DNA from: JBFMHD01 sp040752395 [NCBI: Candidatus Hydrogenedentota bacterium]
Lineage (GTDB): Bacteria > JBFMHD01
Assembly (NCBI GenBank): GCA_040752395.1
Contig: JBFMHD010000056.1
Coordinates: forward strand, 1-14,948
Length of the DNA stretch: 14,948 nt
Direction of reading: 5' to 3'
The position numbers were made by a program, and so were the translations under genes. The notes beneath the pieces are model-generated. The model made no database searches. It saw only the letters and a list, made by a program, of their open reading frames with translations, and was not told where the DNA came from. Of the stretch, positions 241 to 14,266 are shown one piece after another (within the stretch, counting starts at the first letter, position 1; each line of letters begins with the position of its first letter).

Positions 241-1020
241 CTAAAATTTTGTGCCTGCACTTATACGAAAACTCTTCTGGTCTATGATATTCCCTTCAAG
301 ATTTAATATAAGATTAGTCATTCTAAAATCAGCGCCTAATTTTAACGACATATATTCTGTATTTTTACCCGGCGTTTTGAGGATTCGAATGTTAGAGGTA
401 TATAAATCTCCATCTAAGTCATCACGCGTATAACCCACACCTATATAAGGTTTAAGATAGTATAGCTCACGGGGGCTTGCATATAAAGGTTTGTTAAAAT
501 AAATCTTTTGTTCAAGAAATAACCAGGCACCGTATTGAACATTCTTTAAAGCCCCATACTCTACATTTACATTCCATCCTGATACTTGAATTTTTCCTCT
601 CAAATTAAGCCCTGTTTTAAATTCGAATAAATCAGCTTCAAGTCCTACTCCCCATAAAAATGAATTTTTGGCTTTAAAATTTAATGTTCCAACAGTATCA
701 CCAAAATTATGATACTCACCTTTCAAATCAGTTATCCCTGTTTCTAAAAAGCCAGCTATGGTTTTAGTAAAATTTATTTTTGTTTGTAATGCGAAATTGT
801 TCATATTAATAGTTTGTTTATCTTTATAAAAAGGCAATAAGGTAGCTGTGTCAGTTGTTCTATAATCGAGTTCTATATCTCTTGAGATTCTCTCATAAAG
901 TATAGCAAAAGAAATAAACCTGTTTTCATAGATATTATAATAATCTCTTGCATTTAACCTGGTAGAGAATAATAAAAATAATGATATAAAAACAAAAAAC
1001 AGACCCAGCAATCTTTTCAT
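241..1020 (-). CDS. Predicted outer-membrane beta-barrel protein, unknown function
   Basis: No family is recognised by name. From the ATG at 1020 it is 259 residues: a basic start, a hydrophobic signal segment (about residues 5-20) and then a body of alternating polar and hydrophobic strands rich in aromatic and Gly residues. It ends in Lys-Phe; a C-terminal Phe is typical of outer-membrane barrels. A strand pair near residues 190-205 (PYIGVGY) resembles the conserved hairpins of small OM proteins. The frame extends one codon further to a TTG at 1023, but the ATG is preferred because its A is also the last base of the upstream TGA (TGATG), implying translational reinitiation. It is the last gene of the surface cassette and probably acts in the outer membrane with the PorV-like protein. 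The barrel prediction is moderate; the function is unknown. Confidence 0.65.
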   Translation of the reverse strand: MKRLLGLFFVFISLFLLFSTRLNARDYYNIYENRFISFAILYERISRDIELDYRTTDTATLLPFYKDKQTINMNNFALQTKINFTKTIAGFLETGITDLKGEYHNFGDTVGTLNFKAKNSFLWGVGLEADLFEFKTGLNLRGKIQVSGWNVNVEYGALKNVQYGAWLFLEQKIYFNKPLYASPRELYYLKPYIGVGYTRDDLDGDLYTSNIRILKTPGKNTEYMSLKLGADFRMTNLILNLEGNIIDQKSFRISAGTKF

Positions 1021-2531
1021 CAATATTCAGACAATGCCTCAATATTATTTCTTGCAATCTCATTAGATGGGTCTATCTCCAGTACCACTTGCCACTCTTT
1101 TATAGCATTCTGTATATCATAAAGTTTAAGATATGTGAAACCAAGATAAAGATGTACATCAGAGTTTCTTGGCTGTAAATTGATAGCTGATATATAACTT
1201 TCTTTAGCTTTTGAGTATTCTTTAATAGTATAATAACAGGTACCAAGATTATAGAAAGCCCTGAAACTTGACGGATAAAACGATGCAGCCTCACTAAAAT
1301 ATTCGATAGCTTTAGTAACTTCACCTCTTAAAAAAGCGAGTTCACCTTCTTGTAAATATTCTTCGAGGTCACGGATAACTTTAACTGGTTTAATGGGTTT
1401 GACTGATGGTCTCGGAATGGTTTCAGGTGGCGTTAATTTAACAGGGTATTCCTTGTCTCGAACCGGTGGTTTTGGAATCTTTTCTTCTTTTTTAACGCCG
1501 ACCTCTTTTTCAGCCGATTTCTTTAATTGTTCAAGCAACGCCTCTCTTGAGCGTGTGACGACTTTTCTTTCTCTTGGTTTGCCGAAACTTACAGAAGCAC
1601 CGATTCGATGAGTTGATTCAAGGTCATCTTTAGGTATGAATGCATAATCAAGCGTAAAGTCGCTATATCTTATACCAAAACCCACAGAAAACGCTTTTGT
1701 TGCATCTCTATTGGAATCATAACCGCACCGTATAGAAAGTGGCTGTAATCCCCAGAACTCACCACCAATATTCAATCCTATCTCATCATCATTAATAATC
1801 TTTTTAACATCAATAAATAAATTAAGCCGCTCTTCAAAAAGATGGATAGCACATCCTGCCTGTATGGTAATAGGCAGGTCCTCGTCCTCGACGTCATATT
1901 TTAATGAAGAACCGACGTTTCGTATACTCATTCCGAGATCAAACCCTTCAACAGGTGTGTTCCAGATAACCCCAAAATCTAATGCAGCGCCACCTGAAGA
2001 CTGGGTTTCAAGTTTTTCACGAAGGAATTTTAAGCTACCACCAAAAATCCAGTAAGGTAGCGGTCTCACACCATAAGATAAAGTAAATAAAAAATCATTG
2101 CCGCTAAATGTTCCGATGCCACCATAAGGGTTTGCTAATGTTGTTCTTTGAATATCACCATAATCAATCCACGTTATGCCGGTTCCAAATATACCCTGGC
2201 CAAGTGGAACACTGTATGATAGGAAGTCCTGATAAATATCTTCAAAAAGGGCATGATGCATAAAATATACATTATGTCTTGTGTTACGTTCAAGACCTGC
2301 GGGATTCAAAAATAATGCGGTTGCTATATCACCTGCTTCAGCTACACCACTACTACCAAGTGCTGCTGTTCTTGCGCTCGGGTTTATGTTCAGGAATAAA
2401 GCTGAGTTTCGACCCGCATCGTTTGTAGCATAAGAAAGAGAAGCAAGAAGCAAGAAATAAGAGACAAGAAAGCTTTGAATCTTTAAATCTTTAAATCTTT
2501 GAATCTTTGAATCTTTCAATCTTTCAATCAT
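1020..2531 (-). CDS. PorV/UPF0164-like outer-membrane barrel with C-terminal TPR repeats
   Basis: The 503-residue protein has three parts. Residues 36-318 resemble the PorV/PorQ (UPF0164, FadL-like) barrel family: an N-terminal block with NPSARTAALG (about 50-59) and LFLNPAGL (73-80), then repeated amphipathic strands. Residues 319-386 form a charged, Lys/Pro-rich linker. Residues 387-500 form about three TPRs (for example AFYNLGTCYYTIKEYSKAK). In type IX secretion PorV is the outer-membrane shuttle that receives exported cargo; the barrel may play an analogous role here, with the TPR arm binding a partner. The ATG overlaps the stop of the cohesin gene (ATGA, 2528-2531). Oddly, residues 2-21 before the signal peptide are encoded by an 8-nt tandem repeat, and the hydrophobic core (about 21-35) by the GCAAGAA-type repeat. 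A TPR tail is unusual on a PorV protein. The family call is fairly secure; the secretion role is inferred. Confidence 0.78.
   Translation of the reverse strand: MIERLKDSKIQRFKDLKIQSFLVSYFLLLASLSYATNDAGRNSALFLNINPSARTAALGSSGVAEAGDIATALFLNPAGLERNTRHNVYFMHHALFEDIYQDFLSYSVPLGQGIFGTGITWIDYGDIQRTTLANPYGGIGTFSGNDFLFTLSYGVRPLPYWIFGGSLKFLREKLETQSSGGAALDFGVIWNTPVEGFDLGMSIRNVGSSLKYDVEDEDLPITIQAGCAIHLFEERLNLFIDVKKIINDDEIGLNIGGEFWGLQPLSIRCGYDSNRDATKAFSVGFGIRYSDFTLDYAFIPKDDLESTHRIGASVSFGKPRERKVVTRSREALLEQLKKSAEKEVGVKKEEKIPKPPVRDKEYPVKLTPPETIPRPSVKPIKPVKVIRDLEEYLQEGELAFLRGEVTKAIEYFSEAASFYPSSFRAFYNLGTCYYTIKEYSKAKESYISAINLQPRNSDVHLYLGFTYLKLYDIQNAIKEWQVVLEIDPSNEIARNNIEALSEY
2432..2528 (-). repeat. Two abutting short tandem repeats that encode the N-terminus of the PorV-like gene
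   Basis: Positions 2473-2528 are seven perfect-length copies of an 8-nt unit, CTTTNAAT on the plus strand with N = g,a,a,g,g,c,c. Read in the coding direction they give an 8-residue pattern, IERLKDSK then IQRFKDLK then IQSF, because 8 nt shifts frame at each copy. Next to it, about 2432-2470 carries the AAGCAAGAAGCAAGAA repeat also found near 9730, 10685 and 14870. In this orientation it encodes FLLLAS, the core of the signal peptide. Confidence 0.9.
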
Positions 2532-3424
2532 CGTATCACCATTAATTTACCAGTTTTCTTTTCACCTGTTGCTGATGTTACAGTATAAATATATAAACCA
2601 CTGGCAACTTCGTGGCCTTTATCGTTTTTTACATCCCAGTTATATTGGGCGCCACCTGAAAAATTTATCACGCGAACAAGCTCACCTGAGATGGTATAGA
2701 TTCTTATTTGAACAGGATTAGTTAAACCGGCGAAGACAATACCTGATGTTGGATCACTGCTTGAATAGGTTTTACCAGTGTTTGCATCACCATCATTTGG
2801 TCTATATGGATTTGGATAGACCGTAAAATTACTCAAACTGCCTTGAGCCTGGGCAAGTGTTAATGATAATAAATTATATGAGTTTATAGATATGGGAACA
2901 GTATCTCTTTGATAAATATCATCCAGGAAAAATAAATATATATTACTTAAGGTTACAGTTGTTGTTGCGCTTGCTTTGGTTCTGAATTTAAATGTTGTCA
3001 TCATACCTTCGCCAGTTAAACTATCTTTTTCATCTTTTACACAGCAAAATACCTCTATAACACCATCTCTTATAGTATCAGCAAAAACTGTACTGTCTGC
3101 ATTAAGAGGTACCCCATATATAAAAAACCAGCTCTGAGAAGGAGCTGAGATCAATTCAAGTATCGAAGTGGTATAATTTAAATTAAAACTATAAGCCCAT
3201 AATTGACCAGATATTGTATCAGCATAAACACCAAGATCAATCTCCTGGCCTAACTGTAAATCTGTATAAGTTACAGTATCTACTATCATATCCTGGCCGG
3301 TAATAGGTGTAACTGACTTTGTAATCCCAACTATACCTGTATCATCAGCAGATAAATTAATGCTTAAAATTAGTAGGTTTAAAATTAAAAAAATATGATT
3401 TAACTTTTTAGTTACCATATCCAT
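2528..3424 (-). CDS. Secreted cohesin-domain protein with C-terminal FlgD-like/type IX sorting-like domain
   Basis: The 298-residue protein has a signal peptide (hydrophobic 11-24, likely cut near SA-DD at 26-27). Residues about 50-185 match a cohesin-like jelly-roll fold: LGQEIDLGVYAD opening, AYSFNLNYTTSILEL in the middle, and a late GEGMMTTFKFRTK strand. Residues 198-298 start with VYPNPYRP and continue through IRIYTISGELV, a W-D turn, VASGLYIYTV and a KLMVIR end, the pattern of FlgD-Ig-like and type IX sorting domains. Cohesins bind dockerins, and the gene directly upstream ends in a dockerin-like module, so the two products are likely partners. The sorting-like end suggests the protein is held at the outer membrane. 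The start overlaps the upstream stop by 17 nt; ATG codons at 3424 and 3418 are both possible and neither has a strong ribosome site. The cohesin assignment is good at family level, not proven as a dockerin receptor. Confidence 0.75.
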   Translation of the reverse strand: MDMVTKKLNHIFLILNLLILSINLSADDTGIVGITKSVTPITGQDMIVDTVTYTDLQLGQEIDLGVYADTISGQLWAYSFNLNYTTSILELISAPSQSWFFIYGVPLNADSTVFADTIRDGVIEVFCCVKDEKDSLTGEGMMTTFKFRTKASATTTVTLSNIYLFFLDDIYQRDTVPISINSYNLLSLTLAQAQGSLSNFTVYPNPYRPNDGDANTGKTYSSSDPTSGIVFAGLTNPVQIRIYTISGELVRVINFSGGAQYNWDVKNDKGHEVASGLYIYTVTSATGEKKTGKLMVIR

Positions 3425-6400
3425 ACCGTATCATTAACTCTATCATATCCCACGAATCAATTTTGTTTGTACTATCGATGCTTATACCATTATTAAAAGT
3501 TTTAGTCTTAACAATATCATACTTATAAACAGTGCTGTCCCACAAACTAACATTATCGCTTCTTCTCATCCCGAAATATTTCAACATATTACTTAAATCA
3601 TTATCATCCACGTCACCATCAGCATCTAAATCTCCAGCTAAAATTGTATCACCTATTGTTACCTTAACATCAGTATTTGTTTCACGATTACCTACATAAT
3701 CCTGAGCCCTGACAGCAAAAGTAAATGTTTCACCAAAATTTATGGCAAACGGTATTGTGTAAGAAACATCGAATGTATTTCCTATTGCTGAATCATAATT
3801 TACAACACCGTATGTGCCTTTGTAATTTATACCACCTGTATCAGAGAAGATATAGTAAGAGATAGTGTCTGTTGAAACAGAGGCTGACCAGGATAATGTA
3901 ACTGTTCCGGACTGATTTACAGTATATATAAGATTCGTTGGTGCCAATGGGTCTTTATTATTAATAATAACTCTAACCGTACCTGAAGATGAAGTATCAA
4001 CACTGTCCCTGTATTGATATCTGATATCTATTGGGATTTCATCTACTTCTGAGGGCGAAATTAATATTGTATAAGAAGCGGTATTAGAAAAAGTTTGCCA
4101 TGATGCAGTGGTAAATACATCAGGACCCCATATACCTATATAGCTGAAAGAATCCTGACCGAATTTTATTTCAAGCCCCTGTGTATCACCGTTTAAAACA
4201 CCAAAATGTAGAATAATACTGGTATCAACTGATAGAGAGTCACCTCTTACAGTAGTATCAGCCTCTAACCAGACATAGGGATTGGGTGGTCCAAGTGGCA
4301 GTACTGTATCAAGTACTACGGTATCATAACCAGCTTGTCCCTGTAACCCAGCTGAGTCAATCAAGAACGCATAAACATATTTGACCCCATTAGTTCCGAT
4401 TAATCTCACTTGTGTAGTTGTACCAGTTGATGTTGTTAAAGTTATTGTATTACCGTAAATATCTGTGCTATAAATAGTGCAACCTCTGATATCAGTATCA
4501 ATCGCGGTATCGAAGGCGATTGTAACATTTACATAAGTGGTTCCTGTATAATCCCGGCCGTTTATTGTGGAGTCAGAACTTAAAGTGACTGTTGGTGCCT
4601 GAGGTTCGTCCTGGTCTAATATTATACTATCGCTTATTAAAACTATATTACAGGTATCGCTTGTCGGGTCAACATTGTCACGTAATTGAACATATATGGT
4701 TTTAATTCCGTCAACAGGTCCTAAGTTAAAAGAGACTGTTGTCTCCATATCCACGCCTGCAGCAAAAGGGAAATCATTCCAGGGGATACCAGGTATCACA
4801 AGGTCAGAAAGCGACTCGCTCATCCTGTAATATGTAGCAGCACGAGAAGTAATTTTCACAGAAACCAGAGTATTGGTAGTATATAAAGCACCATTATTTA
4901 TAATCATAGAATTATTAATTGGTGGTCCACCATTAATACCAAATGGATTCTTTCTATCAAGTATAAGATAAATCGAATCATTCTGTAAATTAGACCGGTT
5001 CCCGGATAAATCTTCAAAATTGATATAAAATAAATATTTCGCATCACCATTAACATCATTGAGATTAAAGGTTGAATTATTAGCATAAGTAACAAAATTT
5101 GTAGGAGGATAATAAGTATCAATAGACATTAACACCGGCGTGTCACCATACGTACCTGTATCACTCGCATAAATAGAATCAAAATTAATATTTGTATTTG
5201 TTATGAATGTCCCTGTAGTTATACCAAAATAAATACATCGTGGTTTATTACTATCAATAATAGTTATTGTGCCAGTAGCTGTAATGGTTCCATCAGTAAA
5301 TGTAATTGTTAACGATTGTTGAGGATTTATATCCACTTTTGTTTTGATGATTAAAGTTTTATCTAATACACCAGATACCCAGCCACCTAAATTAGCAGGA
5401 CTCACAACATAGCTATTATCCACGCTAACTGTTACACTTGTTCCATAAGACATATCAATATAGCCGCCAAAATCAAGTGCGGTTATTGTTATAGAAAATG
5501 AGTCGCCTGCCTGGACAGTTGCTTGCGGTAAACTTAAACTGAAACTTTTAGCAGGTCCATACGTGCAGGATACAATAATAGTATCATATATAACATAATT
5601 TTCATCTCGAGCAGTGATTACTATAGTGCCTGTTTTATTAATCGAGACATAAGTAGTTGAATAACCGATACCTGTAAAAGTATTAGCACGAGAAGGTAAA
5701 ATAGTTCCTCCTTCTGAAATCTCAAGATACGGACTGAAACTATTTGAATCATAAGTTATATTACCCTCTCTATCGTAAGCTGTGATATATAAAATAAATG
5801 GTACACCGACAGAGACATTTGAGCTTGAAGCACTTAATACAAATGAATCGGTCTTCCCCGGGGTTACGGTTATTTGTGTCGTACCTGTAATGTTCAGGGT
5901 ACAGGCTGAAATAGTTACAACTGCTGGCCGATTTATAGATACATTTGTTTGAGAGACACCAGCACCTGTAAATTGTGTAGAAACCCATGGGATTATCGTA
6001 CCTGTATCAACATTAATAGCAAAGGTGCAGGAAGTACCATTGGAATCAGGCGAAACATTTTCACCTAAATCAAGCGCAGTAACTGTTAAAGTAAATGACT
6101 GTCCCACAGAAACAATTGATTGTGAAGTTGATAAAACAAAAGAAACCCATGCCCCCGGTGTTACGGTTATAGCAACAGTACCTGTATGATTGCTTCCATC
6201 ATGAACTGTTATTACAATATTACCTGCTCGGGTTACTGAAACAACAGCAGTGGTTGTACCACCATTAAATACACCTGAGACATAGGGCACAATTGTTCCA
6301 GAAGATATATTAAATAAAGCCTGGTTACCATCAAACATTGTAGTAATAGTCTCTGAACTATCATAAGCGGTTATAGTCAAAGTAAATGCAACACCAACAG

Positions 6401-8663
6401 ATACACTCGATACTGAAGAAGACATAATAAAATGATCAAGAGCACCAGCACCAAGCGAGACAGTAGTGGTACCTGTAACGGTTCCATTACGGGCTGTAAT
6501 AACAACCTGACCTGAAGCTGTTATTGTAACCATCACTGTGATAACAGAATCAGTAAAAGCAACACTGTCAGGTACAATGATCCCACCACCACTCACAGAT
6601 AATAAAAGTGTATCACCTACAGCACTATCATTTGTTAAATTTAATGCAGCATCTACTGATGTAATTGTAAGATAAAAACCAATACCTGATGTTTGGTTTG
6701 TAGAAGCAGGACTAAGCAAAAATCTGTTCAATGGTCCAGGTGTGATATAAACACCAACAGTATCAAATATCGAACCATCATACACAGTTATAATCTGTGA
6801 ACCAATCTGCGTAAGTGTAACACTTACCTGTCTTATTCCATTAACCCATCCCGTACCAACACTCGTAGGCTGCATAGTAAGATCAGTACTTGTACAGGGG
6901 ATATCAGAGTCATAACTATTATAAATTAAACCGAACTGGTCATACGCAGTAATAGATAAAATAAATCCAAAACAGGCACTGTCCTCAGCCGGTGCAGAAA
7001 TATAAAGTTGTGCTAATTTTTGATTAACTTGAAAAGTATCTGTAGTAGACCAGCCAGTGGTATTCCCTAAATTATCTTGCGAAAACATTCTCCAGTAATA
7101 TATAGCTGAATCAAGATTTGATGCTGTACACGATGTCGCAGTAGAATCTAACCATAAGTCACTATCTGTAATCAACGCAAAACTTGGGTCAGTTGATAAT
7201 TGTATCCTGTATTTATAAAGTCCTGAGATAGTATCAGACGAAGCAGACCAGGTTAATAAAATAGTTGTTTCAGTAGTATCAGATATATCCGTAAGCCCTG
7301 GCATTGTAGGTGGCCAGTAATCCACCATAAATGATGTATCAACAGTTAGAGTGTCTGAAAACTGGCTGTAATTGGTTGCTGTGTCCTGGGCTATTATCCT
7401 GACATAATACGTGTCACATCTTGAAAAAGTGTACCATACCTTTGTGTCACCATATACCCATGTATCAAGATAGGTATTATTAAAATTCGGGTCAGTATCA
7501 ACTTCAACGCGGTATCTCTTAAGTCCGCTCATCGTGTCACTTGAAGCAACCCATTGGAGATAAAAACTTTGGGCTGTTGTATCTATTTGGGGAATAAACT
7601 GAGGTGTAGACGGCGAGGTGCGGTCTACACATACTTTCGTATCTATTGTACCTGTGTCTGAATACCTTACATTAGTAGCACTGTCAACCGCAAGTATCCT
7701 TATATAATATGTATCCTCTGCTGGCGATGCTATTGTCTGGAATGTATCACCATACACCACTGAGTCCGCAAATAAACTTGAAAAATCTGGTGTGTTATCT
7801 ACCTGAACCCGATAGTAACTCACCCCGGATTGTGTATCAAATGAACTAACCCAGGTTATGTATAAATCCCCATTCGTATCAGAATGCGGGATTAAAACTG
7901 GCTGTGATGGCGGCACTCGGTCTACACATACTTTCGTATCTGTAGTAATAGTGTCTGAATAATCACTTAACTGAGCCGAGGTATCTTCAGCTCTAATTCG
8001 GATATAATAAGTATCTTCAGGCGGAGAAGATATTAATAAATAGGTATCACCGTAAACTGACGAATCAGCAAAAGGGCTTGAAAAATTAGGGGCATTATCT
8101 ACTTGTACTTGATAACGTTTTACACCACTTACTGTATCTATAGAGGCTACCCATCTAATCAACAAAGAAGCATTAGTATCAGATAGAGGTATAAGCGAGG
8201 GTGTTGTAGGTGGTTCATAATCTGCCCACATGGTTGTAAAGCCGGTATCACCTGCATCATCAATGTCAACATATATTTTAACAGAGTCTCCTGAATTAAT
8301 TTGTATTGTTTGAGAATCTGTTGGTGGAGCGGATGAAATTTTAATATATGCAGAGAATATCCCATCATTATATGTGGTATCACCTGTAATTGGTGGGGCT
8401 CCTGTAACAGTATCAGCAAGCCCGATCTCGATAGTATCAATGCCGTAAGCAACGCTGAATCGAGTTACGGCGTTGGTATCAACTGTGTCAGTGGTTACAC
8501 TGTCATAAGCTTTAATCCATACAGTATCACCATCATTGAAATATATTGAAAAATTAAATGCATCACTATCGCGGTAAGTATTAACATTGTCAACTACTGC
8601 AAATAGTTTATAAGGGATGATACATAATATAATAATATAAACTAATACCTTATAGGTTTTCAT
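3408..8663 (-). CDS. Giant secreted multidomain adhesin-like protein with FN3-like and Ig-like repeats and a C-terminal dockerin
   Basis: The protein is about 1,751 residues from the ATG at 8663. A GTG at 8693 would add 10 residues but would precede a good signal peptide (MKTYK, hydrophobic to about residue 20, likely cut after FA at 22), so ATG is preferred. Residues 151-546 are four FN3-like repeats of about 100 residues (PP-x-x-P start, W-x-A-S-x-D-T-x-S-G, YYIRI). Residues 547-1139 are six Ig-like repeats of about 97 residues (F-x-L-S, SVG-x-x-F-x-L-T-I-T-A-x-D, a closing TPG). Residues 1140-1572 hold further beta-rich modules, 1573-1670 a fifth FN3-like domain. Residues 1676-1751 resemble a dockerin: a full calcium loop (D1678, D1680, D1682, D1684, D1689) and a weaker second loop (SIDSTNKIDSWD) after a long insert. 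No catalytic motif is visible. The protein is unusually rich in Asp-Thr pairs (about 50) and acidic, suiting a calcium-stiffened surface fibre. It likely docks on the cohesin protein encoded next. The adhesin or structural role is inferred. Confidence 0.82.
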   Translation of the reverse strand: MKTYKVLVYIIILCIIPYKLFAVVDNVNTYRDSDAFNFSIYFNDGDTVWIKAYDSVTTDTVDTNAVTRFSVAYGIDTIEIGLADTVTGAPPITGDTTYNDGIFSAYIKISSAPPTDSQTIQINSGDSVKIYVDIDDAGDTGFTTMWADYEPPTTPSLIPLSDTNASLLIRWVASIDTVSGVKRYQVQVDNAPNFSSPFADSSVYGDTYLLISSPPEDTYYIRIRAEDTSAQLSDYSDTITTDTKVCVDRVPPSQPVLIPHSDTNGDLYITWVSSFDTQSGVSYYRVQVDNTPDFSSLFADSVVYGDTFQTIASPAEDTYYIRILAVDSATNVRYSDTGTIDTKVCVDRTSPSTPQFIPQIDTTAQSFYLQWVASSDTMSGLKRYRVEVDTDPNFNNTYLDTWVYGDTKVWYTFSRCDTYYVRIIAQDTATNYSQFSDTLTVDTSFMVDYWPPTMPGLTDISDTTETTILLTWSASSDTISGLYKYRIQLSTDPSFALITDSDLWLDSTATSCTASNLDSAIYYWRMFSQDNLGNTTGWSTTDTFQVNQKLAQLYISAPAEDSACFGFILSITAYDQFGLIYNSYDSDIPCTSTDLTMQPTSVGTGWVNGIRQVSVTLTQIGSQIITVYDGSIFDTVGVYITPGPLNRFLLSPASTNQTSGIGFYLTITSVDAALNLTNDSAVGDTLLLSVSGGGIIVPDSVAFTDSVITVMVTITASGQVVITARNGTVTGTTTVSLGAGALDHFIMSSSVSSVSVGVAFTLTITAYDSSETITTMFDGNQALFNISSGTIVPYVSGVFNGGTTTAVVSVTRAGNIVITVHDGSNHTGTVAITVTPGAWVSFVLSTSQSIVSVGQSFTLTVTALDLGENVSPDSNGTSCTFAINVDTGTIIPWVSTQFTGAGVSQTNVSINRPAVVTISACTLNITGTTQITVTPGKTDSFVLSASSSNVSVGVPFILYITAYDREGNITYDSNSFSPYLEISEGGTILPSRANTFTGIGYSTTYVSINKTGTIVITARDENYVIYDTIIVSCTYGPAKSFSLSLPQATVQAGDSFSITITALDFGGYIDMSYGTSVTVSVDNSYVVSPANLGGWVSGVLDKTLIIKTKVDINPQQSLTITFTDGTITATGTITIIDSNKPRCIYFGITTGTFITNTNINFDSIYASDTGTYGDTPVLMSIDTYYPPTNFVTYANNSTFNLNDVNGDAKYLFYINFEDLSGNRSNLQNDSIYLILDRKNPFGINGGPPINNSMIINNGALYTTNTLVSVKITSRAATYYRMSESLSDLVIPGIPWNDFPFAAGVDMETTVSFNLGPVDGIKTIYVQLRDNVDPTSDTCNIVLISDSIILDQDEPQAPTVTLSSDSTINGRDYTGTTYVNVTIAFDTAIDTDIRGCTIYSTDIYGNTITLTTSTGTTTQVRLIGTNGVKYVYAFLIDSAGLQGQAGYDTVVLDTVLPLGPPNPYVWLEADTTVRGDSLSVDTSIILHFGVLNGDTQGLEIKFGQDSFSYIGIWGPDVFTTASWQTFSNTASYTILISPSEVDEIPIDIRYQYRDSVDTSSSGTVRVIINNKDPLAPTNLIYTVNQSGTVTLSWSASVSTDTISYYIFSDTGGINYKGTYGVVNYDSAIGNTFDVSYTIPFAINFGETFTFAVRAQDYVGNRETNTDVKVTIGDTILAGDLDADGDVDDNDLSNMLKYFGMRRSDNVSLWDSTVYKYDIVKTKTFNNGISIDSTNKIDSWDMIELMIRYGYGN
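3411..3638 (-). other. Dockerin-like C-terminal module of the giant protein
   Basis: The coded segment contains DLDADGDVDDNDL, matching the dockerin type I calcium-loop spacing D-x-D-x-D-G-x-V-x-x-x-D, followed by a helix LSNMLKYFG. A second segment, SIDSTNKIDSWD then MIELMIRYG, keeps loop positions 3, 9 and 12 but has Ser and Thr at positions 1 and 5. About 30 residues separate the halves, longer than in typical dockerins. It could also be a calcium-binding EF-hand-like tail without cohesin binding. Confidence 0.7.
5247..7025 (-). repeat. Coding block of six tandem Ig-like protein repeats
   Basis: Six diverged repeats of 97-103 residues follow one another within the giant gene. Each opens with a phrase like F-x-L-S-x-x-x-x-x-V-S-V-G, has L-T-I-T-A-x-D about 20 residues in, a V-P or I-P-W turn in the middle, a V-x-I-T-x-x-x-G strand near the end and closes with T-P-G or similar. 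They look like bacterial Ig-like (Big/invasin-type) domains. Similarity is clear in protein but low in DNA, so the duplications are old. Confidence 0.8.
7026..8213 (-). repeat. Coding block of four tandem fibronectin-III-like repeats
   Basis: Four repeats of about 100 residues begin P-P-T-x-P or similar and share S-D-T near the start, W-V-A-S-x-D-T-x-S-G, a Y-R-V-x-V-D strand, a D-P-x-F phrase and a D-T-Y-Y-I-R-I strand. The first two are the closest. They share a 24-nt stretch, perfect at the DNA level, at 7621-7644 and 7918-7941, exactly 297 nt (99 codons) apart, marking a fairly recent in-frame duplication or gene conversion. Confidence 0.8.
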
Positions 8664-8688: not shown

Positions 8689-8789
8689 TCCACACCCTAT
8701 GCTCATCCACACACATAAGCTACCGCCACCAACGTCCTGGCTGTGCGGAGTAATCATAGGTGTGTGGGCTTATGCCCGGGGTGTGGTGG
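8689..8789. repeat. GC-rich imperfect inverted repeat in the leader of the giant gene
   Basis: Arms at about 8689-8718 and 8754-8787 are imperfect reverse complements. CCACACCC (8690-8697) pairs with GGGTGTGG (8779-8786), and CCACACAC (8707-8714) with GTGTGTGG (8760-8767). Competing pairings exist (CCTATG 8696-8701 with CATAGG 8755-8760; CATAAGC 8714-8720 with GCTTATG 8768-8774), plus a small GGGC-TTAT-GCCC hairpin at 8766-8777. By hand count 58 of 100 bases in 8690-8789 are G or C, far above the surroundings. It may be a structured 5' leader RNA or a small dispersed repeat; no known riboswitch was recognised. Confidence 0.6.
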
Positions 8790-8880: not shown

Positions 8881-8905
8881 AAAGACACAAAGTTAAAGTG
8901 TCTTT
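8881..8905 (-). terminator. Perfect 8-bp hairpin spanning the phosphatase stop codon, possible weak terminator
   Basis: AAAGACAC (8881-8888) and GTGTCTTT (8898-8905) are exact reverse complements around a 9-nt loop. The TAA stop of the PHP gene (8893-8895) lies in the loop. On the minus strand the stem ends in TCTTT but is followed by ATGCC rather than a long U tract, so it is not a textbook intrinsic terminator. It could mark the end of the pilus/translation operon or protect the 3' end. Confidence 0.35.
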
Positions 8906-9678
8906 GAAAAGTATAAAGAGAAAAAATTGGCTGGATTTTTAGGTACAAACCCTTTTATATCACTACCTTCAAGAACTGATTTAGGGTTATCATAGACCAG
9001 AATTTCCGCCATTTTCTCTCCAACAATTTCTGCAGCTTTATCTCTTGCTTGAGAAAGAACTGGTTTTCTTGTTGTTGTGTTATGCGAGTCGGTCCCGATA
9101 AAATGTATAAGTCTGCATTGTAATAATTTAAAAGCAAGTTTTTGTATATCCTTGCCAAAAACACCGGTTATACTTGGTGCATCCATCTGGCATAAAACAC
9201 CCTTTATAACTAAATCATAAATAATAGAAGGGTCTTCAATGACTGTTTTAATACGCTCTGGGTGACTTAATACTGGTATAATCCCGTCAATAAGGCATTG
9301 GAAGATCAATAGTTCAGCCCAGTCAGGGATATTATATAAAGAAAACTCGATTAATAAGTATCTGTTATTTTTGTTTAGAGGCAAGATAGTTTTTTTCTGT
9401 AATAAATGTTTTGTCATATCTTCAGATGCCATATTTTCAGATGCAGGATGAAGCTTAACATTTATCTTTTCATTTTCTGCTATTTCGTTTAGAAGACTGA
9501 CATTAGAATGTATTAATTTTACTTTTTCTTTATCTACACTATTTGTGAGTAGATGCGGTGTAGCTATTATATCAGTGATACCATCCTGTTCTGCGATACG
9601 CATCATTTCAAGCGAGGTTTCAAAATCATCTGGTCCATCATCAAGATTTGGTAATATATGAGAATGTATGTCAATCAT
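8893..9678 (-). CDS. CpsB/CapC/YwqE-type PHP-domain protein, probable tyrosine-protein phosphatase
   Basis: About 261 residues from the ATG at 9678 (two further ATGs at 9687 and 9684 would add three residues). The chosen start gives MIDIHSHILP, the usual family N-terminus, with an AGG 9 nt upstream. PHP metal-site motifs are in order (numbered from 9687): HSH at 8-10, ATPH at 42-45, the Glu of ASEN at 84, SHPER at 141-145 and GTDSH at 198-202. This set and the length match manganese-dependent CpsB/YwqE phosphatases, which remove phosphate from tyrosine kinases controlling capsule or exopolysaccharide export. No kinase or polysaccharide gene is in the window, so its partner is unknown. It follows fmt after about 63 nt. 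A histidinol-phosphatase-like PHP activity is a less likely alternative. Confidence 0.85.
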   Translation of the reverse strand: MIDIHSHILPNLDDGPDDFETSLEMMRIAEQDGITDIIATPHLLTNSVDKEKVKLIHSNVSLLNEIAENEKINVKLHPASENMASEDMTKHLLQKKTILPLNKNNRYLLIEFSLYNIPDWAELLIFQCLIDGIIPVLSHPERIKTVIEDPSIIYDLVIKGVLCQMDAPSITGVFGKDIQKLAFKLLQCRLIHFIGTDSHNTTTRKPVLSQARDKAAEIVGEKMAEILVYDNPKSVLEGSDIKGFVPKNPANFFSLYFSKTL

Positions 9679-9712
9679 ACTCATCATCCTGATTCGTAAT
9701 CCCTCAATGGTT

Positions 9713-9740
9713 AGATAACGAAAGAGGCAAGAAGCAAGAA
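9713..9740. repeat. 28-nt purine-rich repeat immediately downstream of fmt
   Basis: The plus strand reads AGATAACGAAAGAGG followed by CAAGAAGCAAGAA. It matches 10671-10698 at 27 of 28 positions in the same orientation and ends 1 nt from the fmt stop (9742-9744). The GAAGCAA part has a 7-nt period. The two copies bracket fmt. Confidence 0.9.
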
Positions 9741-9741
9741 G

Positions 9742-10659
9742 CTAACGTGGTTGATATCCTTTTAAGAGTTCAGTATCAGTCATTATTCTTTTTCCGGGTC
9801 GCTGAATAACATTTAATCTTATAACCGCATCTTTACATTTTATAAACAGACCCTTTTTAACATCTGAGATTACAATATCGCCACAAGAGAAATTATTGCA
9901 ATTAATATTATTGTAAACTTCAACTTTAAGTATCTTCCATACCTCATTTCTAATTTGTAAATGAGCAGCTGGTTGCGGTGACAATCCTCTTACTTTTCCT
10001 AATATTTTGTTTGCTTCTTGATCCCAATCTATAAAGAAATCGTCTTTCCGTAATACCCTTGCGTATGTTGCTTTAGAATCGTCCTGTGGTTGTGGCTTGA
10101 TATTATCAATATTATTTAAAACATCAATCAGTAAATCAGCACCTGTTTCAAACAGCCGTAAAGATAGAGATAGATAATTGTCGGAAGGATCTATTTTAAC
10201 ATTGGTTGATGCAAGTATATCGCCAGCATCCATTTTAAGAGCAGTGTAATGTATTGTTACACCTGTCTCTGCTTTATTATCAAATAACACATAACGTACA
10301 GGAGCTGCACCCCTGTATTCAGGTAATAGAGATGGATGAACATTCAAGGTTTTCAAGCGCGGGAATGAGAATAATATTTCAGGTATATATAAACCGAACG
10401 AAGCTACAACCCCGATATCAGGATTTAAATCTTTAACCCAATTATAGACTTCATCAGAATTAAGTTTCAGAGGATGAATAACATTTATATTATTACAAAG
10501 ACAGAATTGTTCAACCTCGGTTGGGATGATATGTCTTCCCCTACCCCGGGGTTTGGCCGGTTTCGTAATACAGCCACATAATATAAAATTTTTATTGTTA
10601 AAAAGCTTTTTTAGAATTATAAGTGAATCCGAACCAGAGCCATAAAAAAGTATCTTCAT
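9742..10659 (-). CDS. fmt: Methionyl-tRNA formyltransferase
   Basis: The enzyme transfers a formyl group from 10-formyl-tetrahydrofolate to Met-tRNA(fMet) in the cytoplasm. From the ATG at 10659 it has 305 residues, close to the usual 310-315. The N-terminal catalytic domain shows KPAKPRGRGR (33-42), NVHPSLLPEYRGAAPV (106-121) and MDAGDIL (143-149). With this start the catalytic Asn106, His108 and Asp144 fall at the same numbers as in the E. coli enzyme. The C-terminal OB-like domain has the LSPQPAAH motif (226-233). The frame stays open to a TTG at 10740, but those 27 extra codons are a hydrophobic stretch encoded by the GCAAGAA repeat and look artefactual. No clear ribosome site precedes the ATG. 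It lies next to def, a common pairing, though a 28-nt repeat stands at each side. The usual glycine-rich start is slightly altered (FYGSGSDSL instead of F-x-G-T-P-x-F). Confidence 0.95.
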   Translation of the reverse strand: MKILFYGSGSDSLIILKKLFNNKNFILCGCITKPAKPRGRGRHIIPTEVEQFCLCNNINVIHPLKLNSDEVYNWVKDLNPDIGVVASFGLYIPEILFSFPRLKTLNVHPSLLPEYRGAAPVRYVLFDNKAETGVTIHYTALKMDAGDILASTNVKIDPSDNYLSLSLRLFETGADLLIDVLNNIDNIKPQPQDDSKATYARVLRKDDFFIDWDQEANKILGKVRGLSPQPAAHLQIRNEVWKILKVEVYNNINCNNFSCGDIVISDVKKGLFIKCKDAVIRLNVIQRPGKRIMTDTELLKGYQPR

Positions 10660-10670
10660 AAGTAATAATA

Positions 10671-10716
10671 AGATAACGAAAGAAGCAAGAAGCAAGAAAC
10701 GAGAAGAATTAGAAAG
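10671..10716. repeat. Purine-rich repeat upstream of fmt
   Basis: The first 28 nt (10671-10698) match 9713-9740 with one difference. The purine run then continues with ACGAGAAGAATTAGAAAG. It fills most of the 96-nt gap between def and fmt and lies 11 nt upstream of the fmt ATG, where a ribosome-binding site would be expected; none is visible. Confidence 0.9.
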
Positions 10717-10755
10717 TAAGATTAACAAACTCCGCTTCAAAACTGAGGGATTAGT

Positions 10756-11271
10756 TTAAAATTTGTAATCTTTGACAAAAATTTTTTCTATTCTTTCCCT
10801 CTCCTCTTTATTAGCTATATGATCAATCAACAATATACCATTAAGATGATCAATTTCGTGTTGTATAGCTCTTGCTACGAGGCCAGAGGATTTAAATCTA
10901 TTTTTTTTACCTGTGATATCTAATGCTTCAGAGATAATCGTATCAGGTCTGAATATTTTTACGTAGACACCTGGGAAACTTAAACAACCCTCTTCAAATT
11001 CCTGTTTTTCTTTAGATTTTTTAATTATAGACGGATTAATTAAAGCTGTTCTGAATCTTTTGTTGTTTTCGAGCGGGACATTGAGTACTATAATACTTTT
11101 TAATGCTCCGGTTTGTTGTGCTGCTAAGCCTATGCCCCTGGATTGGTCTAAAAGTGAAAACATAGAGTCAACGTATTCTTTAATTCTTTTAGAGACTTTT
11201 GTCACAGGTTCTGATTTTTTTCTTAACACCGGGTCAGGATATATCCTTAAAGTTAAGACCAAGTTTGTCAT
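10756..11271 (-). CDS. def: Peptide deformylase
   Basis: This metalloenzyme removes the formyl group from the N-terminal methionine of new proteins. It has 171 residues, a normal length. All three family motifs are intact: GIGLAAQQ (46-53), EGCLS (94-98) and HEIDH (138-142). Cys96, His138 and His142 would bind the metal and Glu139 is the catalytic base. The N-terminus RIYPDPVLR is typical. The gene begins 30 nt after the secretin stop. A GGAGG directly touches the annotated ATG (spacing 0), while a TTG three codons in (11262) lies 9 nt from it, so the true start may be at 11262. It precedes fmt, with which it forms the formyl-methionine cycle. Confidence 0.96.
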   Translation of the reverse strand: MTNLVLTLRIYPDPVLRKKSEPVTKVSKRIKEYVDSMFSLLDQSRGIGLAAQQTGALKSIIVLNVPLENNKRFRTALINPSIIKKSKEKQEFEEGCLSFPGVYVKIFRPDTIISEALDITGKKNRFKSSGLVARAIQHEIDHLNGILLIDHIANKEERERIEKIFVKDYKF

Positions 11272-11301
11272 CCTCCAGGGTTGTATTCCCGCGGTTACGA
11301 A

Positions 11302-13224
11302 TCACGGTATTTTTAATACTGGTTTCGAGTATTTGGGGATCTCTTTCTTGATACTTGATAAATCAGGATTAATAATTTCTTCTTCCTCGACGCCTTTACC
11401 CACAATGTGTGGTGTTACAAATATGATAAGTTCCTGATTGAGTTTTTCCTGTCTTTTCCTTTTAAATAAATTACCAATTATCGGGATATCACCAAGTAGC
11501 GGTGTTTTTGCCTCTTCTTCTTCTATCTCTTCTCGCAGAAGACCACCTATCGCGATGGTTTTATTATTCATAACATCAAGTATCGTGGATGCATTTTCAC
11601 TTGAAATAAGAGGATAGTCTATCGCATCAATTGTTTGATTACCATGAAAACTCCGTACCGATGGATATATCTCCAGGTTGATTATTTCATTTTCTTTTAT
11701 ACGTGGTGTAACTTTTAAAACGATCCCGATATTAGGTATCTCACTTACGGTTCGTGTTGTAATAACGTTACCCTGATTATCAAGTTGTGTAGTTTGAGCC
11801 GAGATATACCAGGCATTGGTTACAACAGACATAACAGCCATCTCATTATCAAGTACTAAAACCCTTGGTTTAGATAAAATTTTAGCCGTACCCTGGGAAA
11901 CCAGGAATTCAATAAGATTTGTAATAGTAAAATTTTTAAACTTACTATTTATGGTAATATCTGTAGAAGAGAGATTTAAATCAAGGTCAATGGTTCCTGT
12001 ATATAACGGATTTCGTCCTCTGTTATCAGCTACTGTCCAGTCTATACCCATATTTTTAAAAGCATTGGTATTAACTTTTAAAAAGTATGCTTCAATAAGT
12101 ATCTGTTTTTTAGTGGTATCGATCTTTGAAATGATGTCTTTTTTAAATTGTTCAATCACATAAAATGTTGATGTAACAATAACACTGTTGGTTTTAATAT
12201 CTACGGAGAGACTACTTGTAATGCCAGATGGAGTAATATTAGTTAATAACTGGCTAAGAATTGGCACGATATAACTTTGTTGCGGCTCTATCTCACGACT
12301 GATACTACTCCCCACAGGGGTTACTTGCTGTACAGGTGATTTAGATAAAGAGATATGCTCTAATCTTATAACCTCGGTTACAAGGAAATTTATACCAACA
12401 GAGATTTTATCTTCACTCTCGAGCATTGAGGTTTTCAAAGTTTTAACAACTTCTTTTAATGCGTCACAGGGTTCTAAATCTTTTAGAGGAAAATTTATTT
12501 CAAAACTTCTTTCAGATGGTGCAACTATTATAGGCTTATTAATCTTATCAGAGATAAAATCACAGAATTGACCAAGACTTAATGTGTCACTGCCAGTAAC
12601 ATCGTAATAGATACAATTGTCTTTAACTTTTATTTTGGTTAACCTGTCGAACATCTTTTTATTCTTGTTTATCTCAGCTTTATACTGATTGTATTTTAGA
12701 TAATCTATTATTTCAGTTATCTGCTCAATATTTTCAGGATAATCCTTTATAACAACGGTTCGGGTTGCATCGTAGATAGTAAATTTACCTGATGTTGAAA
12801 TCATATTATTAAGAATATTATTTAATATATCAGCATCCAGATCACCGATATCAATGGTAACGGTCCGAGCTTTTAAATGTGCTGGTACTTGTTGAGAGAG
12901 CGAGGGGTTTTCAATGAAATAAATATTATCATATTTGTACAGCCGTAAATCAAGTGAGTTACATATAGTCCAGAGAGCCTGTTCCGGGGTTACATTGTCA
13001 AGATTTATGTTAACGTATAATGGTTCATTATAACTTTTATTTGCATCCATACCAGCATTCTTTCCAAGCACGATATTTAATCCGCTCTGTTCAGATATAG
13101 CCCTTATAACATCCTCAAGCTTTGCGTTTTCAAAGTCAATATTTAAAGTATTTGATAGTGGTGAAGAAAGTACAGTGGAATAAATAAAAATCAGTAATAA
13201 TAATATAAAACTTCTTTTGAACAT
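11302..13224 (-). CDS. pilQ: Type IV pilus secretin (PilQ-like)
   Basis: The 640-residue protein would form the outer-membrane ring through which the pilus passes. It has a signal peptide (1-20), an STN/N0 domain (about 26-105, with LEDVIRAISEQSGLNIVLGKN-like core), an N1-type domain (119-180, ending NIEQITEIIDYL), a second N0/STN-like region (197-285, IIVAPSERSF), an N3-like segment (286-365), and the secretin core (366-608) with GTAKILSKPRVLVLDN, VTPRI, TIAIGGL, PLLGDIPIIGNLF and ELIIFVTPHIV. No AMIN domain, common at the front of PilQ, is seen. A GspD-type secretin is the alternative, but PilN, PilO and PilP-like genes directly upstream favour the pilus. It starts 1 nt after the pilP stop, so translation is probably coupled. 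The acidic tail (613-617, EEEEI) and KYSKPVLKIP end are unassigned. Confidence 0.92.
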   Translation of the reverse strand: MFKRSFILLLLIFIYSTVLSSPLSNTLNIDFENAKLEDVIRAISEQSGLNIVLGKNAGMDANKSYNEPLYVNINLDNVTPEQALWTICNSLDLRLYKYDNIYFIENPSLSQQVPAHLKARTVTIDIGDLDADILNNILNNMISTSGKFTIYDATRTVVIKDYPENIEQITEIIDYLKYNQYKAEINKNKKMFDRLTKIKVKDNCIYYDVTGSDTLSLGQFCDFISDKINKPIIVAPSERSFEINFPLKDLEPCDALKEVVKTLKTSMLESEDKISVGINFLVTEVIRLEHISLSKSPVQQVTPVGSSISREIEPQQSYIVPILSQLLTNITPSGITSSLSVDIKTNSVIVTSTFYVIEQFKKDIISKIDTTKKQILIEAYFLKVNTNAFKNMGIDWTVADNRGRNPLYTGTIDLDLNLSSTDITINSKFKNFTITNLIEFLVSQGTAKILSKPRVLVLDNEMAVMSVVTNAWYISAQTTQLDNQGNVITTRTVSEIPNIGIVLKVTPRIKENEIINLEIYPSVRSFHGNQTIDAIDYPLISSENASTILDVMNNKTIAIGGLLREEIEEEEAKTPLLGDIPIIGNLFKRKRQEKLNQELIIFVTPHIVGKGVEEEEIINPDLSSIKKEIPKYSKPVLKIP

Positions 13225-13225
13225 T

Positions 13226-13678
13226 TTATAAGCTTTTAATCCTTAGTTCGAATATTTTACCTTCAGGCGTAATCAAAACTACCCTGTCTTCACAGATTTT
13301 AATATTATAATTATCCGTCAAGACAGGATACACTATTTTATCTTTTATAGCAATCCATTTTTTATTGTTTGAGGTATAAATCAATGCCACAGGATTATAT
13401 TCATCCCAGATTAAACCGCCGAGTCTGTAGTCAACAGAGGCTTGAGTTGTTTGCACTTCGTAATCTATATTCTGAACAAACGATTGTACCGGGATAAAAG
13501 GGTCTCGTAAATTGTATGACTTAAATTCGTATGATTCTCTTTTAAACTTTTGAGTATCTACATCGGCTTGTAATAAGATATCTTTTGTAATAACGGCTTT
13601 ATTCACCTCGACACTCTTTCTGCTGCAGCTTATTAGTGCGATAACAGAAATTAAAAGCAATAATAAAAGATTTTTCAT
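13226..13678 (-). CDS. pilP: PilP-like pilus assembly lipoprotein
   Basis: The 150-residue protein begins with a hydrophobic signal and a lipobox LISC, so Cys18 should be lipidated and the protein held at a membrane facing the periplasm. The C-terminal half (about 55-150) has a NLRDPFIP motif, the characteristic RDPF phrase of PilP, then a short beta-rich domain with GGLIWDEYNPVALI and KDKIVYPV. In type IV pili PilP binds the PilN-PilO pair and the secretin. The ATG overlaps the pilO stop as ATGA (13675-13678), with an AGGG 7 nt before it, and the secretin follows after 1 nt. The assignment rests on motif plus position. Confidence 0.87.
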   Translation of the reverse strand: MKNLLLLLLISVIALISCSRKSVEVNKAVITKDILLQADVDTQKFKRESYEFKSYNLRDPFIPVQSFVQNIDYEVQTTQASVDYRLGGLIWDEYNPVALIYTSNNKKWIAIKDKIVYPVLTDNYNIKICEDRVVLITPEGKIFELRIKSL

Positions 13679-14229
13679 CTTGATACCCTGTATGTTGATA
13701 AATCCAGTGTAAAACTTATAGATGATTTTTTCTCGAGTTTGGAAACGATTTTTATATTGATGACTTTAACCAATCTTTCAAGTTTGGTTATCTCGGAAAG
13801 AAATAAGCCAAGTGACGGGAACCCGCCTGTTCCTTCAATATGTATCGGTACCTCCATATATTCTCCTTTGTTACCTTCCTGTGTCGGCGTGAATACATTC
13901 ATTTTTATTCCAAAATTTTGCGCTAATTTTGAGAGGTTCTCAAGTATAACCTCGATCTCTTTTTCTGTGGGAAGCACCTGTTTCGCTATCTCAAGTTCCT
14001 TTTTTAAATTATCTAATTGACCTTTAATAATAGCCTCTTTATTAGCAATGGTTTCTGCTTTATTTAGCTCTTCCTGTTTCTGATTGATTGTCTGAATCTT
14101 ATTCTGGATGTCCAGCCAGAGGGGAGATAAAAAATATAGGTAGTATATGTAAATAGAACCCGCGATGAGTAAAGATATATAAATCGTTTTGTGCTTTTTT
14201 GGTATCTTGTCCCATCCAAGATTTAACAT
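13675..14229 (-). CDS. pilO: PilO-like pilus alignment protein
   Basis: The 184-residue bitopic inner-membrane protein has a short cytoplasmic start, one membrane helix (about 15-34), a coiled coil (about 38-95, rich in Lys, Glu, Gln and Asn) and a periplasmic ferredoxin-like domain (about 95-184) with the family phrase EVPIHIEGTGGFPSLGLFLSEI and LERLVKV. PilO pairs with PilN and with the PilP lipoprotein to link the inner-membrane machinery to the secretin. The ribosome site GAGGAG lies 4 nt before the ATG and belongs to a 25-nt leader nearly identical to that of pilN. It overlaps pilP by 4 nt. Confidence 0.9.
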   Translation of the reverse strand: MLNLGWDKIPKKHKTIYISLLIAGSIYIYYLYFLSPLWLDIQNKIQTINQKQEELNKAETIANKEAIIKGQLDNLKKELEIAKQVLPTEKEIEVILENLSKLAQNFGIKMNVFTPTQEGNKGEYMEVPIHIEGTGGFPSLGLFLSEITKLERLVKVINIKIVSKLEKKSSISFTLDLSTYRVSR

Positions 14230-14231
14230 AC

Positions 14232-14256
14232 TACTCCTCTGAAAAACATTGTAACT
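14232..14256 (-). promoter_or_regulatory. Duplicated leader with ribosome-binding site, upstream of pilO
   Basis: This 25-nt segment matches 14827-14851 at 24 of 25 positions. On the minus strand it reads from AGTTACAA to AGAGGAGTA and carries the GAGGAG site 4 nt before the pilO ATG. It lies in the 37-nt gap between pilN and pilO, next to two diverged copies of the 8-nt CTTTNAAT-type unit (about 14257-14272). Confidence 0.8.
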
Positions 14257-14266
14257 CTTGAATCTT

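What the first reader, a model, noticed from the sequence alone, without database searches (positions are those of the whole stretch)
241..8663. Four-gene cassette pairing a giant dockerin protein with a cohesin protein, a PorV-like barrel and an OM barrel
The giant repeat protein ends in a dockerin-like module. The next gene, overlapping by 17 nt, encodes a cohesin-like domain fused to a sorting-like C-terminal domain. The next encodes a PorV-like barrel, the kind of protein that handles sorting-domain cargo. The order suggests a self-contained surface assembly: barrel, cohesin anchor, then a long fibre docked by calcium-dependent cohesin-dockerin contact. Cohesin and dockerin are best known from cellulosomes; here no enzyme is present, so the pair would serve adhesion or coat building. 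Domains are seen; the assembly is inferred.
Basis: partly seen in the sequence, partly recalled or inferred. Interest (0 to 1): 0.75.

Follow-up and report, generated by a model that had tools for sequence, protein, structure and literature searches.

The report
Docking cassette for giant surface protein
Four overlapping bacterial genes look like a kit for displaying one very long protein on the cell surface: the long protein, a small adaptor that may clip onto its end, an outer-membrane protein that may hold the adaptor, and a fourth exported protein; similar clip-and-anchor parts are known, and the contacts here are inferred, not shown.

Summary
The four genes are real, minus strand, overlapping by 17, 4 and 4 nt, with export-signal-like starts. 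Gene 2 has a cohesin-like domain (E 1.4e-4, just under the Pfam cut-off) and a type IX sorting CTD over cut-off. Gene 3 is a PorV/PorQ-family barrel (166.5 bits, cut-off 90) with an added TPR domain. The dockerin is the weakest part: one perfect calcium loop at the giant's C-terminus (2 of 5000 shuffles), a degenerate second half, and no Pfam dockerin on the native sequence. Gene 4 as a barrel is unconfirmed. The CTD resembles PorZ's more than a generic tail, and the barrel PorQ more than PorV; PorQ holds PorZ on the P. gingivalis surface. So gene 3 may be a fixed holder for the adaptor, which holds the giant. A Rhodothermus plasmid has a similar CTD-gene/barrel-gene pair; a Parabacteroides plasmid PorQ does not. 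Both genome scans found no relatives, so conservation is untested. New variant of a known kind.

The parts
3408..8663 (-). gene 1: giant repeat protein, 1751 aa, signal-like start, fn3 and Ig-like repeats, dockerin-like C-terminus
   Evidence: fn3 E 1e-8, 35.7 bits against cut-off 25
7029..8216 (-). fn3-like repeats, about aa 150-545, about 100 aa each
   Evidence: best self-alignment scores 135-282 for windows starting at aa 117-453, against a shuffled-window maximum of 64; Pfam fn3
5394..6986 (-). second family of repeats, Ig-like by reading, about aa 560-1090, spacing about 97 aa
   Evidence: best self-alignment scores 73-166 for windows starting at aa 549-1029; three matching motifs 97 aa apart
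3411..3638 (-). dockerin-like module, aa 1676-1751
   Evidence: calcium loop at aa 1678-1689, 2 of 5000 shuffles have one in the last 90 aa; no Pfam dockerin on the native sequence; weak PDB matches to dockerins
3597..3632 (-). calcium-binding loop DLDADGDVDDND
2528..3424 (-). gene 2: adaptor, 298 aa, signal-like start, cohesin-like domain and CTD
2936..3265 (-). cohesin-like domain, aa 54-163
   Evidence: PF00963 E 1.4e-4, 22.5 bits, cut-off 24.1; NagJ chains E 0.0022-0.0037
2531..2854 (-). type IX sorting CTD, aa 191-298, nearest to the PorZ C-terminus
   Evidence: PorZ model 51.3 bits, TIGR04183 26.4 over cut-off 23; 49.7 and 28.8 on the fragment; FlgD_ig 30.4 over 27
1020..2531 (-). gene 3: PorV/PorQ-family outer membrane barrel with C-terminal TPR domain, 503 aa
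   Evidence: NF033709 166.5 bits, cut-off 90; PorQ 116.5, PorV 60.8 bits
1584..2405 (-). PorV/PorQ barrel part, aa 43-316
   Evidence: aligns with the R. marinus PorV/PorQ protein, 85 of 315 identical, E 4e-21
1035..1364 (-). TPR domain, aa 390-499
   Evidence: Pfam TPR_2 E 3.8e-15; PDB TPR proteins
241..1023 (-). gene 4: exported 260-aa protein, possible outer membrane barrel
   Evidence: signal-like start and C-terminal Phe; OMP_b-brl 16 bits, below cut-off 28.7

Best explanation
The four genes make a surface-display unit for one long, non-enzymatic protein. Shown: a tight overlapping gene set; export-like starts on all four; a cohesin-like domain fused to a sorting CTD; a PorV/PorQ-family barrel. 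Inferred: (1) the adaptor crosses the outer membrane by a type IX-like system using its CTD; (2) its PorZ-type CTD stays on and is gripped by its own PorQ-type barrel, as PorQ holds PorZ, so the cohesin faces outward on a fixed base; (3) the giant, on which no CTD was found, is held by its C-terminal dockerin in that cohesin, with calcium, so that the fn3/Ig-like rod projects from the cell for adhesion or coat building; (4) the TPR part of gene 3 lies in the periplasm and ties the anchor to other envelope parts.
For: Gene order and overlaps. CTD over two curated cut-offs. The CTD scores 49.7 bits with the PorZ model against 28.8 with the generic tail; the one control CTD scanned, on the R. marinus FG-GAP protein, shows no such preference, 27.5 against 27.7. 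Its only PDB sequence match up to E 1 is 5m11, PG93 of P. gingivalis (E 0.29; that this is PorZ is recalled). Gene 3 scores 116.5 with PorQ against 60.8 with PorV. Independent pair: on the R. marinus plasmid a protein with a related C-terminus (35 of 101 identical, E 2e-10 for that comparison) is encoded directly before a PorV/PorQ-family gene, overlapping by 29 nt. PorQ appears to anchor PorZ on the P. gingivalis surface, and truncation of half the PorZ CTD prevents its surface display (PMC5562754, Discussion part 1 of 2 read). Cohesin. Dockerin loop. No CTD family on the giant up to E 1.
Against: Dockerin is weak: second half degenerate, no Pfam dockerin on the native sequence, PDB dockerin matches only at E 0.04-1.9 and outranked by designed TIM barrels. 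Cohesin is 1.6 bits under its cut-off. PorQ and PorV scores are under the equivalog cut-offs (220, 250) and the PorZ score under 260, so none is an orthologue; PorZ's model is longer, which helps its score. The R. marinus CTD is itself below the TIGR04183 cut-off (19.0 against 23), prefers PorZ only slightly (22.5), its barrel prefers PorQ only slightly (95.8 against 81.1), and its protein has no cohesin match. The PorQ on a Parabacteroides plasmid has no CTD-protein gene annotated beside it, so the pairing is 1 of the 2 plasmid records whose match covers the barrel. Structure predictions were poor (mean pLDDT 34.4 and 49.4). I saw no type IX core gene in the window (5 proteins scanned; the rest by reading) and no genome is held. 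How a giant without a CTD leaves the cell is unexplained.
Confidence: 0.43

Rival explanations
1. The adaptor is a general socket: its cohesin takes several dockerin proteins coded elsewhere in the genome, and the giant is just one, or docks on another cohesin.
For: Ca. Stygibacter of Cloacimonadota is described with several dockerin enzymes and a CTD-bearing cohesin scaffold coded in its genomes (PMC8542988, section 7). ANME archaea and syntrophic SRB carry many variable cohesin and dockerin proteins (passages).
Against: 17-nt overlap of giant and adaptor genes favours a matched pair. One cohesin domain was found on the adaptor, not a tandem array.
Confidence: 0.23
2. There is no dock. The giant ends in a calcium-stabilised EF-hand-like cap and the 'cohesin' is an ordinary jelly-roll spacer; the genes are neighbours because all serve the envelope.
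For: No Pfam dockerin on the native C-terminus, EF-hand_6 only at E 0.17 or worse; degenerate second half; cohesin under cut-off.
Against: Loop position and the LSNMLKYFG stretch after it fit a dockerin half; the second half keeps a D-S-W-D start and a similar helix, by reading; a cohesin-like and a dockerin-like sequence in overlapping genes is unlikely by accident (judgement).
Confidence: 0.23
3. Gene 3 is a PorV-type shuttle: the CTD is cut off by a sortase and the cohesin is linked to a surface glycolipid, with gene 3 recycled.
For: Type A CTDs are handed to PorV in F. johnsoniae and P. gingivalis (PMC12618676 passages; PMC5562754); the CTD passes TIGR04183.
Against: CTD nearest PorZ and barrel nearest PorQ; a barrel gene beside a single cargo gene suggests a stoichiometric partner (inference); extra TPR domain.
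Confidence: 0.11

Closest known systems
Ca. Stygibacter (Cloacimonadota) cellulosome-like system, PMC8542988
   Same: Cohesins on a protein with a CTD as surface anchor; dockerins on signal-peptide proteins for which section 7 mentions no CTD; one dockerin protein is halomucin-like, not an enzyme
   Different: There a 3,755-aa multi-cohesin, CBM-bearing scaffold with hydrolases as partners; here a 298-aa single-cohesin adaptor beside one giant repeat protein and a barrel gene
PorZ-PorQ of the Porphyromonas gingivalis attachment complex, PMC5562754
   Same: CTD protein held on the surface by a PorV-family barrel; nearest models for both parts
   Different: PorZ has beta-propellers, here a cohesin instead; barrel carries TPRs; scores below equivalog cut-offs
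Type B CTD adhesin and PorP/SprF-like gene pairs of Flavobacterium johnsoniae, PMC12618676 (passages)
   Same: Surface protein gene beside the gene of its own outer membrane partner
   Different: There the CTD is on the substrate itself and of type B; here it sits on a separate adaptor
Rhodothermus marinus plasmid pRMAR01 pair (NC_013502.1)
   Same: Gene for a protein with a related C-terminus overlaps a PorV/PorQ-family gene
   Different: CTD below the TIGR04183 cut-off; no cohesin match and no TPR match up to E 0.1
NagJ of Clostridium perfringens, PDB 2jh2, 2w1n, 2o4e, 2ozn
   Same: Best solved sequence matches to the cohesin-like domain; non-cellulosomal cohesin, recalled
   Different: Part of an O-GlcNAcase of a Gram-positive; no CTD (recalled)
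Planctosome of Nemodlikiaceae, PMC6461901 (passages)
   Same: Proposed cohesin-dockerin surface complex without evidence for cellulose degradation
   Different: Peptidases, lamin-tail anchor

Membership tests
Cohesin (PF00963) | Score over the curated Pfam cut-off | tested here: not met
   22.5 bits against 24.1, E 1.4e-4: near miss, so called cohesin-like
Cohesin (PF00963) | Similarity to solved cohesins | tested here: inconclusive
   Four NagJ chains, E 0.0022-0.0037, first half of the domain only; that these chains are cohesins is recalled
Dockerin type I (PF00404) | Two calcium loop-helix repeats | tested here: inconclusive
   First loop perfect and unique; second lacks ligands at two positions, by reading
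Dockerin type I (PF00404) | Match to the family model | tested here: not met
   No match on native sequence; 9.8 bits, E 1.2, cut-off 22.9, only on a copy with part of the middle left out
Cellulosome | Multi-cohesin scaffold with enzymes | tested here: not met
   One cohesin-like domain, no enzyme among the four genes; rest of genome unseen
Type IX type A substrate (TIGR04183) | CTD over cut-off at the C-terminus plus signal peptide | tested here: met
   26.4 against 23; signal-like start by hydropathy only
Type IX type A substrate (TIGR04183) | Type IX core machinery in the same genome | not testable with these tools
   No genome held
PorV/PorQ family (NF033709) | Score over cut-off | tested here: met
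   166.5 against 90
PorQ (NF033711) or PorV (NF033710) proper | Score over the equivalog cut-off | tested here: not met
   116.5 against 220; 60.8 against 250
PorZ (NF052228) | Score over the equivalog cut-off | tested here: not met
   51.3 against 260, C-terminal domain only
Outer membrane barrel (PF13505), gene 4 | Score over cut-off | tested here: not met
   16 against 28.7

The most novel reading that the evidence does not exclude
The sorting signal is supplied in trans. Giant and adaptor meet in the periplasm by dockerin-cohesin contact and the giant, on which no CTD was found, is carried out through the type IX channel as a hitchhiker on the adaptor, then stays on the adaptor's own PorQ-type barrel. 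Cohesin-dockerin would be both the export ticket and the anchor.
Probability: 0.15. Interest if true: 0.8.

Novelty: new variant of a known kind. Interest (0 to 1): 0.5.

Why it matters
If true, it shows cohesin-dockerin docking used in a bacterium with an outer membrane to hang a non-enzymatic fibre on a dedicated PorQ-type anchor, outside cellulosomes. It also raises a question that can be tested directly: how dockerin proteins without a CTD, apparently also the case in Ca. Stygibacter, cross the outer membrane. The CTD-gene/PorQ-type barrel pair, seen here and, in a weaker form, on the R. marinus plasmid, hints that PorZ-PorQ-like holding pairs may be used more widely than for the P. gingivalis attachment complex.

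Tried and rejected
Relatives in genomes: both scans of genome contigs, with PilQ and Fmt, confirmed no relative; 26 and 80 stretches matched a pattern. I spent these on neighbouring genes rather than on the cassette, and the peptides used look poorly conserved (judgement), so absence of relatives is not shown. No whole genome is held.

Viral contigs: adaptor (1 pattern match) and giant (2) gave no confirmed relative; gene 3 gave one locus of 22 pattern matches, L001, whose genes read like a phage's, which matches only gene 3's residues 3-50 and whose record has no cohesin match; rejected as chance.

Structures: AlphaFold2 on single sequences gave mean pLDDT 34.4 (adaptor, 271 aa) and 49.4 (last 200 aa of the giant). 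Foldseek gave no match at E 0.001 or better for either; the best 50 hold many fn3 folds, behind a mite allergen, for the giant's end, and mostly viral capsid proteins for the adaptor. I draw nothing from them. No complex was modelled: the tool takes single window proteins.

A dockerin match appears only on a copy with residues between the halves left out (E 1.2); I do not count it.

Plasmids: tblastn of the giant found 5 records, 3 of them annotated as fn3 proteins; of its last 200 aa only chance matches (4 records, E 0.4-0.9); of the adaptor none at 1e-5 and one record at 1; of the CTD alone 6 records at 10, R. marinus at 4e-5 and 5 Cupriavidus at 0.4-8.

Hairpin upstream as a riboswitch: no Rfam family at gathering score in the window; one chance microRNA match at E 1.5; no exact copy of a 21-base core in viral contigs.

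Literature: no paper held 3 of the 4 terms cohesin domain, dockerin, C-terminal sorting, PorV; the listings for type IX secretion with piggyback (7 papers) and for at least 2 of type IX secretion, hitchhik, co-secreted, lacks a CTD, without a CTD (13 papers) showed no paper on export of CTD-less partners by title or abstract start; passages of PMC9251779 speak of peroxisomes and the Tat pathway. Peer et al. 2009 is not held.

Full report
What is there. The window holds, on the minus strand, pilus genes (PilN, O, P, Q by reading), def and fmt (by reading), a CpsB/CapC-type gene (195.1 bits) and then, after a 229-nt gap, four overlapping genes. The giant runs from the ATG at 8663 to 3408, 1751 aa. 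The next gene starts 17 nt before the giant ends. The third and fourth overlap their predecessors by 4 nt (for the fourth, if it starts at its TTG; by reading, 1 nt if at the next ATG). GC content of the four genes (0.308-0.379) is near that of the seven neighbours (0.325-0.350), so they do not look foreign. All four have a strongly hydrophobic stretch near the start (best 12-residue mean 2.3-3.2).

The giant. Pfam finds fn3 (35.7 bits, cut-off 25). Self-alignment shows two repeat families: windows starting at aa 117-453 have best scores of 135-282 and windows at aa 549-1029 of 73-166, against a maximum of 64 among 200 shuffled windows; from the window at aa 1077 on, no score exceeds 61. The protein is acidic, 179 D+E against 77 K+R. 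No enzyme family passed its cut-off (NCBIfam matched an exoglucanase model at 38 bits, cut-off 1950, over the fn3 repeats). No CTD family was listed for it up to E 1.

The dockerin. The loop DLDADGDVDDND has every calcium ligand position of a dockerin half (motif recalled) and is followed by LSNMLKYFG. It is the only such loop in the giant. Shuffling the giant gave one anywhere in 50 of 5000 trials and one in the last 90 residues in 2 of 5000. The second half keeps the helix part but not two ligands, by reading. Pfam does not report a dockerin on the native sequence. Of 13 PDB sequences listed up to E 10 for the last 90 aa, 6 are dockerin chains or chains of cellulosome-type proteins (E 0.042-1.9; three are named dockerin, the other three are recalled as such), 2 are EF-hand proteins and 5 are designed TIM barrels, two of which rank first at E 0.0006-0.0009 through a repeated short match. 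I call it dockerin-like; my own estimate is about 70% that it is a true dockerin.

The adaptor. The N-terminal part matches cohesin at E 1.4e-4, 22.5 bits, 1.6 bits under the cut-off. In the PDB its only matches up to E 5 are four NagJ chains (E 0.0022-0.0037). The C-terminal part passes TIGR04183 and FlgD_ig. Its best model is the C-terminus of PorZ, 51.3 bits on the whole protein and 49.7 on the fragment, against 26.4 and 28.8 for the generic tail. One control, the CTD of an FG-GAP protein on the R. marinus plasmid, scores the two alike, 27.5 and 27.7, with PorU (30.2) and a FlgD model (31.3) above both. One control is thin, and the PorZ model is longer.

The barrel. Gene 3 is a PorV/PorQ-family protein by curated cut-off, nearer PorQ (116.5) than PorV (60.8) but below both equivalog cut-offs. 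It carries a C-terminal TPR domain (TPR_2 E 3.8e-15); the R. marinus relative has no TPR match up to E 0.1.

An independent pair, and a counter-case. Gene 3 hits 10 plasmid records, 8 of them only by the TPR region. The other two are R. marinus pRMAR01 and a Parabacteroides distasonis plasmid. The adaptor, searched separately, hits one record up to E 1, the same R. marinus plasmid; of two places there, the one listed lies at the end of the gene just before that barrel gene. The two R. marinus genes overlap by 29 nt. The C-terminal domains are identical at 35 of 101 positions and the barrels at 85 of 315. The R. marinus C-terminus is below the TIGR04183 cut-off (19.0 against 23) and scores 22.5 with PorZ; its barrel scores 95.8 with PorQ and 81.1 with PorV; its protein has no Pfam match up to E 0.1. 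In Parabacteroides the gene is annotated porQ and its annotated neighbours are a TonB protein and a CMP kinase, with no CTD protein named (neighbours not scanned). So a CTD protein with its own barrel gene is seen in 1 of the 2 records, and the recurrence is only a hint.

Mechanism. In P. gingivalis PorQ binds PorZ and appears to anchor it, and truncation of the PorZ CTD stops surface display (PMC5562754, Discussion part 1 of 2). Type A CTDs otherwise go to PorV as shuttle (PMC12618676, passages). By analogy gene 3 is a fixed holder for the adaptor. The adaptor then offers its cohesin to the giant's dockerin. This fits the giant lacking a recognisable CTD. Export of the giant is the open step: it could use another route, or ride with the adaptor (novel case). 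I found no printed example of the latter in the listings, which is a narrow search of open-licence papers.

Known or new. Cohesins on a CTD-anchored surface protein, with dockerin partners, are described for Ca. Stygibacter, including a dockerin on a halomucin-like protein (PMC8542988, section 7 read). Cohesin-dockerin sets outside cellulose breakdown are described in Planctomycetes (PMC6461901), ANME archaea (PMC9012536) and syntrophic sulfate reducers, where a role in adhesion is proposed (PMC10553843) (passages). So the principle is known. The compact unit, with a single-cohesin adaptor, a PorZ-type CTD and a PorQ-type barrel with TPRs, was not seen in the parts of those texts that I read, and one search listed 0 papers with 3 of its 4 terms. 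I file it as a new variant of a known kind.

Limits. The organism is unknown. Both structure models were too poor to use.

Noticed in passing
8690-8786, minus strand: A GC-rich (57%), long imperfect hairpin lies in the gap before the giant gene, ending 26 nt before its ATG. Folding energy -44.9 kcal/mol, z -2.9, 0 of 200 shuffles as stable for a 119-nt stretch; z -1.69, 10 of 200 shuffles, for the whole gap. No Rfam family. It could be a leader structure or a small mobile repeat.
   Followed up: partly
2469-2529: An 8-nt repeat (AAATCTTT, 7.6 copies) makes the first residues of gene 3 (MIERLKDSKIQRFKDLKIQSF) before its signal-like stretch; the true start may lie further in, or the repeat may act as a length-variable switch (speculation).
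   Followed up: no
1-240: The stretch after the last gene has two 14-nt copies of GTGTAGAGCGCAAA and two near copies of a 15-nt repeat, TTTTGACTCACGACT.
   Followed up: no
8893-14824, minus strand: Pilus genes, def, fmt and a CpsB/CapC-type phosphatase gene stand directly upstream, a mixed run of pilus, housekeeping and capsule-type genes (pilus, def and fmt names by reading).
   Followed up: no
L002:4499-8936: R. marinus pRMAR01: 1132-aa protein annotated only as hypothetical, with a C-terminus related to the adaptor's, overlapping a PorV/PorQ-family gene, next to a TonB-dependent receptor.
   Followed up: partly
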